Assembly (NCBI GenBank): GCA_030706785.1
Contig: JAUZNW010000011.1
Location: 1 to 40,889 of the forward strand
Direction of reading: 5' to 3'
DNA from: Bacteroidota bacterium
GTDB lineage: Bacteria; Bacteroidota; Bacteroidia; Bacteroidales; VadinHA17
DNA length: 40,889 bases
Below are positions 15,906 through 20,959 of this stretch, piece by piece. The notes beneath the pieces were generated by a model. That model did no database searches. It saw only the letters and a list, made by a program, of their open reading frames with translations, and had not been told where the DNA came from. The position numbers were made by a program, and so were the translations under genes. Numbering within the stretch: position 1 is the first letter of the stretch; each line of letters begins with the position of its first letter.

Positions 15906-17813
15906 TTAGAATATCCCGGCTGATTCCCTGACAGGTATTTCACCATGCTTTACCTTTCCTGATGTGAATGGGACTGCTATTGCTTCTGCAACGATTTCTG
16001 AAATATCTGATATTCTGGTTTTTGTGGCCGGTGTAAGCGTCTTCTTGCACAACGGGCAGACAGTAATTATACAATCAGGCTCGCATTTCGCCAGCTCCCT
16101 TGTGACATTGACCGCAATCTTTCTTCTGTCAGCACTGCTTATTTTAATATTTCCCAGGCTTCCTCCGCAACACATAGAATTTTCATCATCAAACTCAGTA
16201 GGTTCAAGCCTGGCAACATGCTTTATTACCTCTTTAGGTTCATCATAAACTCCTGAATTCCTTCCAAGTTCACATGACGTATGATAGGTGACCTTTTTAT
16301 TCAGGAAATTCATTTTGACTGAACCCGTCTCAATCAGGTTCCAGATGAATTGTGAATGGTGCAGTACTTCTACATCGAGATAATAGCTCTCCCGGAACAC
16401 CTTGTAACAGATGGGGCATGAAGTGACGAGGGTATGTGCACCGGATTTCCAGATCACCTGCGAATTATAATTGATAAGCTCCCTCGCTTCCTTATCCTGT
16501 CCGGCCAGCATCAAAGGACGGCCGCAGCATACGCCTCCATTTTCATCCATGAACGACCATTTAAGTCCTGATGCGTTCATAATATTTACCATCGACCTCT
16601 TTATTGAAGGGGTAATATGGGTCATGCAGCCCGCAAAATAAAGGACATCAGCGCTTTGTGAATTAGTTACAGGAAGAAAGTCGAATGGATTACTATAGTT
16701 CTGCCTGGCAGACTGAACTATCTGCCTGTTGCGGAGATATCCCTTCCAGGTATTTGTGTAATTAATATCAGATTCTCCCTTTCTCCTCTGGATCATCCTG
16801 ATCTTTGTGAGTTCTATGCCAACAGGACATTTCAGGTCACACCTGCCGCAAAGCAGGCAGTTATGAGCTATTTCTCCGGTTTCATCCCCATTCCTTATCG
16901 CTTTCATCAGGTAAGCTGACTGGATATGATTTATCCCGGCTGAAAAATTCAGCTGACATTGATCTATACAGATCCCGCATGATGAGCATGAATGCACCTC
17001 CACTTCCGAAAAAGTCCCTGCTTTGTCGCCAGTTTTTATACCTGAATTTCTCATAAAAATGAGGAACAGTTCCACAGGGATGTGGAAATATCTTGTCAGG
17101 GGAAGCATGAAGAAGAAAGTTCCAAGTGACAGTGAATAGAGCCACCAGAACGGGTATGCCACCTCGCGGGCAGGTAAAAATGAAGCAAGGAGTGATCCGA
17201 GGGTCCCTGTAAGAAAGCTTCCTGTCCCGTAAGCTCCGCTTGTGAGGCTTTCTGCAAGAAGACGGCTTGGGAAAACCAGCCAAAGCGCTGTCATTGCTAT
17301 CTTATCCTTAACCTTCAGGTGTGTTGTCTTCTTCATCCCTACAACCTTGGGAGTGAACCGTTTTATTATTGCAAGGATAAGTCCTGAAAGAATAAAGGCC
17401 AGAATAAGGTCCATCATGAAGGAGTATGCTACCTCAGAAAATGTCTTCCCGTAATCGGGATTGAAGAATTTAAAGAAGATCGCCTTGTAGGGTGCATTAA
17501 GATGCCTTTCTCCGAAAATATCCGCTTCAAGTGTCCCGAACAGAATGAGCAGAAACCACCCGAAAGCCAGGCTCATGTGCATGTATCCAAGGCGCGGTTT
17601 TGTTTTCAGGATCTTACGGTGAATCAGGCTTTCGAGAAATATCTCTTTAAGGCTCTGTCCAAATGCCCTCCCGAAAAAGCCCCTCTGAAGCCTGAGCTTG
17701 TCAGGTCTTGAAAGTTCCCTGAACCAGATAATGCTCCTTGTTACAGCATAGATCAGTATGAAGTAAAGACCCAGGTTAAATGGTATGACAAACGGATCAA
17801 ATTGCATATCCAT
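15906..17813 (-). CDS. Membrane-anchored heterodisulfide reductase-like protein (NarI/DsrM-like membrane domain fused to HdrD/DsrK-like 4Fe-4S + CCG domains)
   Basis: 635 aa with several N-terminal TM segments, two 4Fe-4S motifs (CSSCGICIDQC; CLLCGRCDLKCP) and two CCG modules (CMTH...CCGRP...CPIC; CELG...CCGGS...CPLC). Confidence 0.88.
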   Translation of the reverse strand: MDMQFDPFVIPFNLGLYFILIYAVTRSIIWFRELSRPDKLRLQRGFFGRAFGQSLKEIFLESLIHRKILKTKPRLGYMHMSLAFGWFLLILFGTLEADIFGERHLNAPYKAIFFKFFNPDYGKTFSEVAYSFMMDLILAFILSGLILAIIKRFTPKVVGMKKTTHLKVKDKIAMTALWLVFPSRLLAESLTSGAYGTGSFLTGTLGSLLASFLPAREVAYPFWWLYSLSLGTFFFMLPLTRYFHIPVELFLIFMRNSGIKTGDKAGTFSEVEVHSCSSCGICIDQCQLNFSAGINHIQSAYLMKAIRNGDETGEIAHNCLLCGRCDLKCPVGIELTKIRMIQRRKGESDINYTNTWKGYLRNRQIVQSARQNYSNPFDFLPVTNSQSADVLYFAGCMTHITPSIKRSMVNIMNASGLKWSFMDENGGVCCGRPLMLAGQDKEARELINYNSQVIWKSGAHTLVTSCPICYKVFRESYYLDVEVLHHSQFIWNLIETGSVKMNFLNKKVTYHTSCELGRNSGVYDEPKEVIKHVARLEPTEFDDENSMCCGGSLGNIKISSADRRKIAVNVTRELAKCEPDCIITVCPLCKKTLTPATKTRISDISEIVAEAIAVPFTSGKVKHGEIPVRESAGIF

Positions 17814-18141
17814 TCATTTTTTGAAACATTTGCTTTGCCAGGAATACGACATTCCTTGTATTTACTCCCCGGGGGCAGACAAGAGAGCATTTCCCGCAAA
17901 GCATGCATTTTTTAAGCTCGTTCCATGGCTTCTCATTCTCCCCCCTGTGAATGAGAATATTAATCTCCCTGAGACTGAACTGTGTGTAATTACCGGCAGT
18001 GCAGGTCGCGGTACATCCTCCACAGGCAATGCAGAGCTTAAAGCTTGGTTCCTTCTCGCGAATGTAATCAGCCAGGCTTCTGTCGTTTGCTTCCCAATCG
18101 ATATACCTTACCTTTGATATTGAAAATCCGAATTTATCCAT
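17797..18141 (-). CDS. HdrC-like 4Fe-4S dicluster protein
   Basis: 114 aa with CIACGGCTATC and CMLCGKCSLVCP motifs. Overlaps the start of the next gene by 17 bp. Confidence 0.85.
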   Translation of the reverse strand: MDKFGFSISKVRYIDWEANDRSLADYIREKEPSFKLCIACGGCTATCTAGNYTQFSLREINILIHRGENEKPWNELKKCMLCGKCSLVCPRGVNTRNVVFLAKQMFQKMNGYAI

Positions 18142-18142
18142 C

Positions 18143-19177: not shown

Positions 19178-20239
19178 TCAAACATTGACCAACCCAGTAA
19201 CACCAGTTCTTTCAAGACATTTCCTGGTCTTGTATTTTTCACCTGGATCATATTCTATCCCGATTTTATCAAGCACAGGTTCGCAATTTGTCTGATGCAT
19301 CTGGAGACCCAGATCCCATGGATCATACCCAAGTACTAATCCTGCCACCTCTTCATAGGTGAATACAGGTATTCCCTCTCCGTTCTGTCCGTATCTTTTT
19401 CCTTCCATTTCGTTTATTACATACTGCCATCTGTCGAGGAACATTGGGCAACCCGGGCAGTTGGTAATAATCATATCTGGTTTGAACGGCTTCATAGATT
19501 CAAACTTTTCCTTTGAGCAGGCAATTGAGAATCCCCTGTTAGCCTGTACCAGGTATTGTCTGAATCCGAATCCGCAACAATGTCTCCTTTCTGGATAGTC
19601 AATCACGTTACCTCCCCATTCTTCGACCATTCCTGCCAGAACATAGGGATATTCAGCGCCACCGACACCTTTTGAAGGAAACATTTTGGCATAATGGCAT
19701 CCGATGTGGTCAACAACTTTTAAAGGTTCACCTGTGTTTTTATTTATCAGTCTGTATTTAGCGGCTGAAGAAATTTCCCTTCTGAATTTATAGATTACAT
19801 CACTTGCGTGAGCCAGATTCTTTGGAACTTTAAATTCTCTGCCAGTGGCTATTCTCAGCATCTTTCGGATTCTCTGTTCAACCTCAGGATAATGATGCCA
19901 CGTATCGAGAATCTCAGTGTAAAGTCCGAATGAAGTAATGCATGAAGGGAGCATATTTTCATATCCTGCCTCAGTCATGAGGGCAAATTGCCTTGCCACT
20001 ACGGTCATTGTTGTTTCCACAGGTACTATATCACCGTGGTAACCTATGCCGGTACAGGTTGTATGGCAGGGATTTTCGAATACATCTTTATTCAACACCT
20101 CCCTCATAATTCTCAGGAAAGTTGTTTCTGATCCGGGGAAAAAGTTTTGCCGGACACAACTCCGGACGTAGAAGAACTTATCTTCCGCAATCTCTTTCTG
20201 ATAATCTTTCCAGATATTTCGTTTTCCTTCTATGTTCAT
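19178..20239 (-). CDS. HdrB-like CCG-domain protein
   Basis: 353 aa with canonical C-terminal CCG module (GCHYAKMF...RHCCGFGFRQ...NCPGCPMF) and a degenerate N-terminal one (CHTTCTGIGYHGD...PSC). Confidence 0.85.
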   Translation of the reverse strand: MNIEGKRNIWKDYQKEIAEDKFFYVRSCVRQNFFPGSETTFLRIMREVLNKDVFENPCHTTCTGIGYHGDIVPVETTMTVVARQFALMTEAGYENMLPSCITSFGLYTEILDTWHHYPEVEQRIRKMLRIATGREFKVPKNLAHASDVIYKFRREISSAAKYRLINKNTGEPLKVVDHIGCHYAKMFPSKGVGGAEYPYVLAGMVEEWGGNVIDYPERRHCCGFGFRQYLVQANRGFSIACSKEKFESMKPFKPDMIITNCPGCPMFLDRWQYVINEMEGKRYGQNGEGIPVFTYEEVAGLVLGYDPWDLGLQMHQTNCEPVLDKIGIEYDPGEKYKTRKCLERTGVTGLVNV

Positions 20240-20251
20240 CCTTGAAGCAAA

Positions 20252-20959
20252 TTATCGTGTATGTGTATTATTGTTCGATTTATAAACATGCTCAAAGTAT
20301 TCATTATCAATTCCATCTCCAAGGGTCAGGTCTAATTCATCAGCTTTCTTCCTGGAGTACTCTTCTATCTTTTCGAATCTTTTTGTTCCTCCGGTTACAT
20401 CAAAAATCTTTTTAATTTCATCAAGGGCCTCCTTAGGGATTTTTCTTAAAATCCCGGGGCCATCACCTTTATAGTTTGCACCAAGTCTTTTAAAAACTTC
20501 ACTCCAGTTTGACTGGATCCAGTCCCAAACGGGACCTTGTTCAGGGTGCATATCGGTGCCAACCCCTTCAAGATAAAGACAATAGCCATATTTAAGAATC
20601 CACTCTCCTACTGTCCTTTTTATCGCAAGCTGCTGCCTGCCTTTTTCTGATTCCACGAAGAAGCCAAGATCTTGTGAAAGCCCGCGGAGGGCCATTATTA
20701 TAAGTCCTGGTGCGTTTCCCCTCGGGCACCTAGTCTTGCACGACATGCACTCACCACAATACCAGATTGTGTCAGACTTCAGAAGTTTTTCAATTTCTTC
20801 ATTATCTCCCGACTGGACGAGATCGACAATATTCCGCGGATCGTAATTGTAGAATTCGGCTGCCGGACAGATAGCAGTGCAGACGCCACAGTTCATGCAG
20901 GCATTCAATCCTTCTTCAAACCGTATATCTTGTTTAAGCAGGTCGAGATAATTCTCCAT
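20252..20959 (-). CDS. HdrC-like 4Fe-4S dicluster protein with C-terminal extension
   Basis: 235 aa with CMNCGVCTAICP and CGECMSCKTRCP motifs. First gene of the Hdr-like operon. Confidence 0.86.
   Translation of the reverse strand: MENYLDLLKQDIRFEEGLNACMNCGVCTAICPAAEFYNYDPRNIVDLVQSGDNEEIEKLLKSDTIWYCGECMSCKTRCPRGNAPGLIIMALRGLSQDLGFFVESEKGRQQLAIKRTVGEWILKYGYCLYLEGVGTDMHPEQGPVWDWIQSNWSEVFKRLGANYKGDGPGILRKIPKEALDEIKKIFDVTGGTKRFEKIEEYSRKKADELDLTLGDGIDNEYFEHVYKSNNNTHTR

What the first reader, a model, noticed from the sequence alone, without database searches (positions are those of the whole stretch)
15906..20959. Five-gene Hdr-like operon combining sHdr-type C1-B1-A-C2 genes with a membrane-anchored DsrMK/HdrDE-like fusion
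Seen: tightly packed minus-strand genes in the order HdrC-like, HdrB-like, short HdrA-like (342 aa), small HdrC-like (114 aa), then a 635-aa protein with an N-terminal NarI/DsrM-like membrane domain, two 4Fe-4S motifs and two full CCG modules. Established: sulfur-oxidising sHdr complexes have the order C1-B1-A-hyp-C2-B2 and are soluble; DsrMK and HdrDE pair a NarI-type cytochrome b with a CCG protein that acts on thiol/disulfide substrates. Inference: the soluble B2 subunit is replaced by a membrane-linked CCG subunit, which would couple thiol/persulfide redox chemistry directly to the quinone pool. No methyl-CoM or dissimilatory sulfite reductase genes are in the window.
Basis: partly seen in the sequence, partly recalled or inferred. 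Interest (0 to 1): 0.8.

Follow-up and report, generated by a model that had tools for sequence, protein, structure and literature searches.

The report
Membrane-linked sulfite-making Hdr complex
A five-gene, membrane-anchored relative of the bacterial sulfur-oxidising Hdr enzyme is conserved across gut and sediment Bacteroidales and in several lineages sits inside the gene cluster for sulfonolipids, so it probably makes the sulfite from which these anaerobes build the sulfonate head group of those lipids.

Summary
Five tightly packed minus-strand genes (C1-B-A-C2-M) lie at 15906-20959. Their order is conserved: 118 of 140 fetched Bacteroidales loci carry C1, B, A and M, mostly in identical order.

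A and B are sHdrA- and sHdrB1-type by tree and by cluster-ligand pattern. M, in the place of soluble B2, is a five-helix membrane protein with two [4Fe-4S] motifs and two intact CCG modules; its nearest solved fold is the menaquinone-linked EtfD, not DsrMK/HdrDE.

In five loci from four families the genes lie in one operon with SulA (cysteate acyltransferase), and six more have cysteate synthase directly downstream of M. Cysteate synthase uses sulfite. Among 79 genomes with cysteate synthase, 14/33 with HdrB but only 2/46 without lack the CysH/CysD sulfite route (p=4e-5); genomes without cysteate synthase show no such link (12/40 vs 11/40). SulA is in 26/28 versus 9/24 genomes with and without HdrB, and in the window's genome.

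Best reading: a quinone-linked sHdr variant that oxidises bound sulfane sulfur to sulfite for sulfonolipid synthesis. Chemistry, direction and assembly are inferred; in the window's own genus the cysteate-forming enzyme was not found.

The parts
20252..20959 (-). HdrC1-like subunit, 235 aa, two [4Fe-4S] motifs (C21-C31, C68-C78)
   Evidence: HdrC models 92 bits; 8 Cys at least 99% conserved; 49% identical over 206 aa to the C1 gene of the Picosynechococcus PCC 7003 sHdr-type cluster
19178..20239 (-). HdrB1-type subunit, 353 aa; CCG1 degenerate (C28, C62, C100 kept; T61 and S103 replace cluster Cys), CCG2 intact (C181, C221, C222, C261, C264)
   Evidence: grouping with sHdrB1-type B1, support 0.997; model matches HdrB 5odc_B, TM 0.71/0.85
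18143..19171 (-). short HdrA, 342 aa, FAD-binding, with HCVGSRD...YCSKLCC cluster motif, no ferredoxin domains
   Evidence: best full-length PDB hit 6tjr (Hyphomicrobium sHdrA, 349 aa, 214 bits); tree
17797..18141 (-). small HdrC2-like subunit, 114 aa, two [4Fe-4S] motifs
   Evidence: 8 invariant Cys
15906..17813 (-). membrane CCG fusion M, 635 aa: membrane domain, two [4Fe-4S] motifs, two CCG modules
   Evidence: pLDDT 83.6; top fold hit M. smegmatis EtfD 9ojn, E 3.9e-20
17046..17813 (-). membrane domain of M (residues 1-256), five long helices 7-33, 73-100, 125-153, 168-195, 215-239; invariant His65, His79, His244 are candidate b-heme ligands
16395..16646 (-). CCG module 1 of M (C396, C429, C430, C466, C469)
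16035..16292 (-). CCG module 2 of M (C514, C548, C549, C586, C589)

Best explanation
The five genes encode a menaquinone-linked variant of the sulfur-oxidising Hdr-like (sHdr) complex. Proposed mechanism: a protein- or small-thiol-bound persulfide is bound and oxidised at the CCG-type Fe-S sites of HdrB and M, with HdrA (FAD) as electron hub; electrons pass through C1, C2 and the ferredoxin-like clusters of M to b-heme(s) and menaquinone; the product is sulfite. In many Bacteroidales this sulfite is used by cysteate synthase (sulfite + O-phosphoserine to cysteate), and SulA and the ketocapnine reductase turn cysteate into capnine-type sulfonolipids. Shown here: gene content, conservation, sHdr-type subunits, EtfD-type membrane subunit, operon linkage to sulfonolipid genes, and complementary distribution with CysH/CysD. 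Inferred: substrate, direction, quinone coupling, assembly of the five products into one complex, and that the same role holds in the window's own organism.
For: Operons: L139 and L157 read glyoxalase-like - SulA - SDR (ketocapnine reductase candidate) - C1-B-A-C2-M - cysteate synthase on one strand; L184 reads SulA - CS-like - C1-B-A-C2-M - SDR - glyoxalase-like; L190 reads SulA - CS-like - SDR - glyoxalase-like - C1-C2-M-B-A; L192 reads SulA - CS-like - C1-B-A-C2-M; six more loci have cysteate synthase directly downstream of M. SulA identity: 544 bits to A. finegoldii SulA 7u7h. Cysteate synthase: 479 bits against a cut-off of 324.9. Complementarity: CysH/CysD absent in 14/33 HdrB+ versus 2/46 HdrB- genomes that have cysteate synthase (p=4e-5; one genome per family, median p 0.012), and 12/40 versus 11/40 in genomes without it. 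SulA in 26/28 HdrB+ versus 9/24 HdrB- genomes, p=2e-5, and in the own genome with the SulA-type Lys281 motif. sHdr-type A and B. EtfD-like M with five helices. sHdr systems are described as forming sulfite from sulfane sulfur (PMC12423496).
Against: No biochemistry. The window's genus has HdrB, M and SulA but no TIGR03844-type cysteate synthase, so the sulfite user there is unidentified. Genome-wide co-occurrence of HdrB with TIGR03844 alone is weak (33 of 95 HdrB+ versus 47 of 201; p=0.05). HdrB was used as the proxy, and a minority of HdrB genes are C1-B pairs without A, C2 and M, though reclassifying the doubtful ones keeps both tests significant. LbpA, regarded as essential in known sHdr systems, was not found. 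Two members of the genus lack M, and one of these (G020) has SulA. Genomes are related, so counts are not fully independent.
Confidence: 0.52

Rival explanations
1. A HdrDE-like thiol:menaquinone oxidoreductase: it interconverts a disulfide and thiols (a low-molecular-weight thiol, thioredoxin or a TusE/DsrC-like protein) to balance redox, without oxidising sulfur to sulfite.
For: M has two intact CCG modules like HdrD and an N-terminal membrane domain; a TusE/DsrC-like gene is in the window; thiol-releasing Cys/Met lyase genes lie directly downstream of M in L121, L126 and L130.
Against: Does not explain the sulfonolipid operons or the complementary distribution with CysH/CysD. DsrC-family genes are in only 8 of 25 genomes of the genus while M is in 23 of 25. 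The window DsrC-like protein lacks the second redox Cys.
Confidence: 0.22
2. A dissimilatory sulfide/sulfur-oxidation complex used for energy in the window's organism: SQR makes persulfide, TusE and DsrE2 carry it, the Hdr complex makes sulfite, electrons go to menaquinone.
For: SQR, TusE-like and DsrE2 genes 11-14 kb away in the same window; QmoABC-like genes upstream of the operon in L121; no cysteate synthase of the TIGR03844 kind in the genus.
Against: DsrC-family genes are absent from most relatives that have the complex; the operon is widespread in gut-associated Bacteroidales; SulA is in all 17 tested genomes of the genus.
Confidence: 0.13
3. M is an Etf:menaquinone-reductase paralogue, and the complex passes electrons from another donor into menaquinone, with Hdr subunits only as electron carriers.
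For: Top fold hit is EtfD.
Against: The genome has a separate EMR-like gene between an acyl-CoA dehydrogenase gene and Etf-like genes (L048; about 27% identical to M). No etfAB gene was seen next to the hdr operon in the loci read, and the CCG modules and HdrB are strictly conserved.
Confidence: 0.05
4. The complex runs in the reductive direction, consuming sulfite or a sulfonate-type sulfur compound with electrons from menaquinol.
For: Association with sulfite users and producers does not fix the direction by itself.
Against: HdrB genes are enriched where cysteate synthase is present and the CysH/CysD sulfite source is absent, as expected for a producer.
Confidence: 0.05

Closest known systems
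sHdr (sulfur-oxidising heterodisulfide reductase-like complex) of Hyphomicrobium and other sulfur oxidisers
   Same: Gene order starts C1-B1-A and continues with C2; short HdrA without ferredoxin domains (6tjr best full-length hit); the closest annotated plasmid cluster (Picosynechococcus PCC 7003) has a B1 with the same degenerate CCG1.
   Different: No 'hyp' gene; C2 is half size (114 versus 203 aa in the cyanobacterial cluster); soluble B2 replaced by the membrane fusion M; no lbpA or lip genes recognised alongside; linked in several lineages to lipid biosynthesis genes.
Mycobacterial EtfD / EMR-type Etf:menaquinone reductases
   Same: Single-chain fusion of membrane domain, two [4Fe-4S] motifs and CCG modules; best PDB match by sequence and fold (9ojn).
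   Different: Only 16% identity in the structural alignment; encoded with Hdr subunits and not with etfAB; a separate EMR-like gene next to Etf-like genes exists in the same genome.
HdrDE of methanogens / DsrMK of sulfate reducers
   Same: Membrane cytochrome-like part joined to a CCG protein.
   Different: One fused chain; no NCBIfam cut-off reached (DsrK 68 of 400 bits); accompanied by HdrA and HdrB1, which those systems lack.
QmoABC
   Same: HdrA-type flavoproteins and a HdrC-membrane fusion that touch quinone and sulfur metabolism.
   Different: Window proteins do not reach the Qmo cut-off (qmoC 47 and 22.5 of 300 bits); QmoABC-like genes occur as separate neighbours in L121.

Membership tests
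sHdr complex | Short HdrA without ferredoxin domains, related to Hyphomicrobium sHdrA | tested here: met
   (6tjr, full length, 214 bits), tree grouping (support 0.978)
sHdr complex | HdrB1-type subunit | tested here: met
   T61/S103 replacement pattern shared with the B1 of PCC 7003 and a related Acidithiobacillus plasmid protein; grouping support 0.997. Reference set is small.
sHdr complex | Gene order hdrC1B1A-hyp-hdrC2B2 with soluble B2 | tested here: not met
   C1-B-A-C2-M, no hyp, B2 replaced by a membrane protein
sHdr complex | Association with LbpA and lipoate-assembly genes | tested here: not met
   own genome has one full-length GcvH-type protein, judged ordinary by inspection, plus one weak match beside a carboxylase-like gene; no such genes were recognised beside the operon in the loci read
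sHdr complex | Forms sulfite from sulfane sulfur | not testable with these tools
   Indirect only: linkage to sulfite-using genes
DsrMK / DsrMKJOP | DsrK equivalog score and dsrAB/dsrC partners | tested here: not met
   DsrK 68 of 400 bits; DsrC family in 8 of 25 genomes of the genus; dsrAB not searched genome-wide
HdrDE | Separate HdrE and HdrD, heterodisulfide substrate | tested here: not met
   Single fused chain with HdrA and HdrB1 partners; substrate not testable
EtfD/EMR | EtfD-type fold | tested here: met
   9ojn, E 3.9e-20
EtfD/EMR | Functional and genetic link to etfAB | tested here: not met
   the genome's EMR-like gene beside Etf-like genes is elsewhere (L048); none seen beside the operon in the loci read
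Sulfonolipid gene clusters | Co-location with SulA, cysteate synthase or ketocapnine reductase | tested here: met
   in 11 loci of relatives; not in the window itself, where SulA is on another contig

The most novel reading that the evidence does not exclude
A biosynthetic sHdr: an anaerobic, menaquinone-linked, LbpA-independent complex that makes sulfite from sulfane sulfur for sulfonolipid synthesis, replacing the sulfate-assimilation route in gut and sediment Bacteroidales.
Probability: 0.48. Interest if true: 0.85.

Novelty: new variant of a known kind. Interest (0 to 1): 0.74.

Why it matters
Sulfonolipids of Alistipes, Odoribacter and relatives are studied as modulators of inflammation, and the acyltransferase, ketocapnine reductase and cysteate synthase steps have been identified, but the held papers that I searched do not say where a strict anaerobe without sulfate assimilation gets the sulfite. 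This operon is a concrete, testable candidate. If right, it moves sHdr-type chemistry from lithotrophic sulfur oxidisers into common gut bacteria as a biosynthetic enzyme, shows how such a complex can feed electrons directly to quinone, and gives a genetic handle for switching sulfonolipid production on and off.

Tried and rejected
DsrC/TusE as obligate partner: rejected, since it is in 8 of 25 genomes of the genus while M is in 23 of 25, and it lacks CysB. A universal sixth gene: none found. The 178-aa lipoprotein gene downstream (15187-15723): conserved only in the genus and stays beside purL when M moves away. Simple co-occurrence of HdrB with TIGR03844: only weak, which led to the sharper CysH/CysD test and its control. 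Canonical bifurcating HdrABC: rejected because HdrA lacks ferredoxin domains; a separate HdrABC cluster (L049) exists in the genome. Pfam found no NarI domain in M, so the membrane part was judged from the model. One HdrB family search and one M family search returned mostly unnamed metagenomic proteins.
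Full report
The observation. Pfam and NCBIfam see 4Fe-4S domains in C1 and C2, CCG domains in B and M, an FAD domain in A, and generic Hdr similarity, all below NCBI's equivalog cut-offs.

Conservation. In the same genus M is present at 63-77% identity in 22 of 24 other genomes, and at 38-50% in five genomes of other families of the order. 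A scan of one genome per species returned more than 500 relatives of HdrB; the best 80 loci are all labelled Bacteroidales, Bacteroidia, Bacteroidetes or taxa within them (apart from one labelled only uncultured bacterium), including Butyricimonas, Alistipes, Prolixibacteraceae and Lentimicrobiaceae. In 65 of the 80 the exact order C1-B-A-C2-M is read on one strand; most others are cut by contig ends or have split ORFs. In a sample of 300 genomes of the phylum, mostly outside the order, no other genome has a full-length M: the best are about 180 bits over the C-terminal half, against 1022 bits for the window. HdrB is in 95 of 296 genomes of the order.

Anatomy. HdrA is the short form: its best full-length solved relative is 6tjr, the Hyphomicrobium sHdrA, and it keeps the HCVGSRD...YCSKLCC motif. 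HdrB keeps C28, C62 and C100 of the first CCG module but has T61 and S103 where canonical HdrB has cluster cysteines; the second module is intact. The same pattern is in B1 of the C1-B1-A-C2-B2 cluster on a Picosynechococcus PCC 7003 plasmid, and small trees put window A and B with the sHdr-type proteins (support 0.978 and 0.997). The HdrB model matches archaeal HdrB. M has five long N-terminal helices, three invariant histidines (65, 79, 244), eight ferredoxin-type cysteines and two complete CCG modules. Its top fold match is mycobacterial EtfD, ahead of HdrB, and the best PDB match by sequence is also EtfD. The genome's own EMR-like gene is elsewhere, between an acyl-CoA dehydrogenase gene and Etf-like genes (L048), and a FlxABCD-HdrABC-like cluster is elsewhere again (L049), so M is a separate paralogue.

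What lies next to it in relatives. In the window itself the neighbours are unrelated housekeeping genes. In relatives a pattern appears. In L139 (Alistipes sp. MAG) and L157 one strand reads glyoxalase-like protein, SulA, SDR, C1-B-A-C2-M, cysteate synthase, most gaps being a few bp. The SulA gene product scores 544 bits to the solved A. finegoldii cysteate acyl-ACP transferase (enzyme described in PMC9304779), and the cysteate synthase type scores 479 bits against a cut-off of 324.9 (protein from L161). L184 reads SulA, a cysteate-synthase-like gene, C1-B-A-C2-M, SDR, glyoxalase-like protein. L190 has SulA, the CS-like gene, SDR and glyoxalase-like protein followed by the Hdr genes in another order (C1-C2-M-B-A). 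L192 reads SulA, CS-like, C1-B-A-C2-M. Six more loci have cysteate synthase directly downstream of M (L041, L131, L150, L153, L161, L207). The CS-like gene is a second member of the threonine/cysteate synthase superfamily and is also next to SulA in G025. Ketocapnine reductases of the SDR type are described in PMC11211663; the SDR here is a candidate only.

A prediction and its test. Cysteate synthase uses sulfite (established for the methanogen enzyme; from general knowledge). If the complex supplies sulfite, genomes with cysteate synthase but without the assimilatory CysH/CysD route should need it. Of 79 such genomes of the order, CysH/CysD (PF01507) is absent in 14 of 33 with HdrB but only 2 of 46 without (p=4e-5; with one genome per family the median p is 0.012). 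In genomes without TIGR03844 the figures are 12 of 40 and 11 of 40 (p=1). SulA itself is in 26 of 28 HdrB-positive and 9 of 24 HdrB-negative genomes that lack TIGR03844 (p=2e-5), in all 17 tested genomes of the window's genus, and in the window's genome (G000:C251), with the lysine that distinguishes SulA from serine palmitoyltransferase (PMC9304779). Counting doubtful HdrB genes as negative leaves both tests significant (p=3.6e-4 and 5e-5). Simple co-occurrence of HdrB with TIGR03844 is only weak (p=0.05).

Mechanism. sHdr systems are described as forming sulfite from sulfane sulfur in the cytoplasm (PMC12423496; PMC12345210). I propose that this complex does the same, with M taking the place of soluble B2 and delivering electrons to menaquinone, and that in many lineages the sulfite goes to cysteate and on to sulfonolipids. 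The sulfur donor is unknown; candidates are persulfides from the Cys/Met lyase encoded directly downstream in L121, L126 and L130, or from the SQR-TusE-DsrE2 genes in this window. Neither is universal. LbpA, the lipoyl protein of known sHdr systems (PMC6067878), was not found: the genome has one full-length GcvH-type protein, which looks ordinary.

Limits. No step of the chemistry is shown. The genus of the window has SulA but no recognised cysteate synthase, so its role there is less certain than in the Alistipes-type operons. HdrB was used as the proxy for the complex, and some HdrB genes belong to a different C1-B pair. The genomes are mostly metagenome bins, and the reference sets for the trees are small. 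Papers connecting Hdr complexes with sulfonolipids were not found in the held library, which does not cover subscription journals.

Noticed in passing
window 32370-34484: Plus-strand trio: type III SQR (above the NCBIfam selenoprotein-subtype cut-off), a TusE/DsrC-like protein with CysA but Thr at the CysB position, and a DsrE2-like protein. DsrC-family genes are in 8 of 25 genomes of the genus.
   Followed up: partly
L181, L196, L197, L198: A second class of HdrC1-HdrB pairs without A, C2 and M, beside methionine-gamma-lyase-like, Mrp/ApbC-like and cobalamin-adenosyltransferase-like genes; the HdrB proteins form their own clade. Function unknown.
   Followed up: partly
L121:1-4959: QmoA-, QmoB- and QmoC-like genes directly upstream of the Hdr operon in a sludge-digester Bacteroidales genome; whether aprAB or sat are also present was not checked.
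   Followed up: no
L192:10412-11641, L221:7275-8498: A cysteate-synthase-like PLP enzyme, below the TIGR03844 cut-off, next to SulA: probably a second type of cysteate synthase.
   Followed up: partly
window 15187-15723: A 178-aa lipoprotein of unknown family, convergent with and overlapping purL, conserved only in the genus.
   Followed up: partly
L139:3157-4233 and L190:13169-14239: A ~357-aa glyoxalase-like protein recurring in the sulfonolipid-Hdr operons; role unknown.
   Followed up: no
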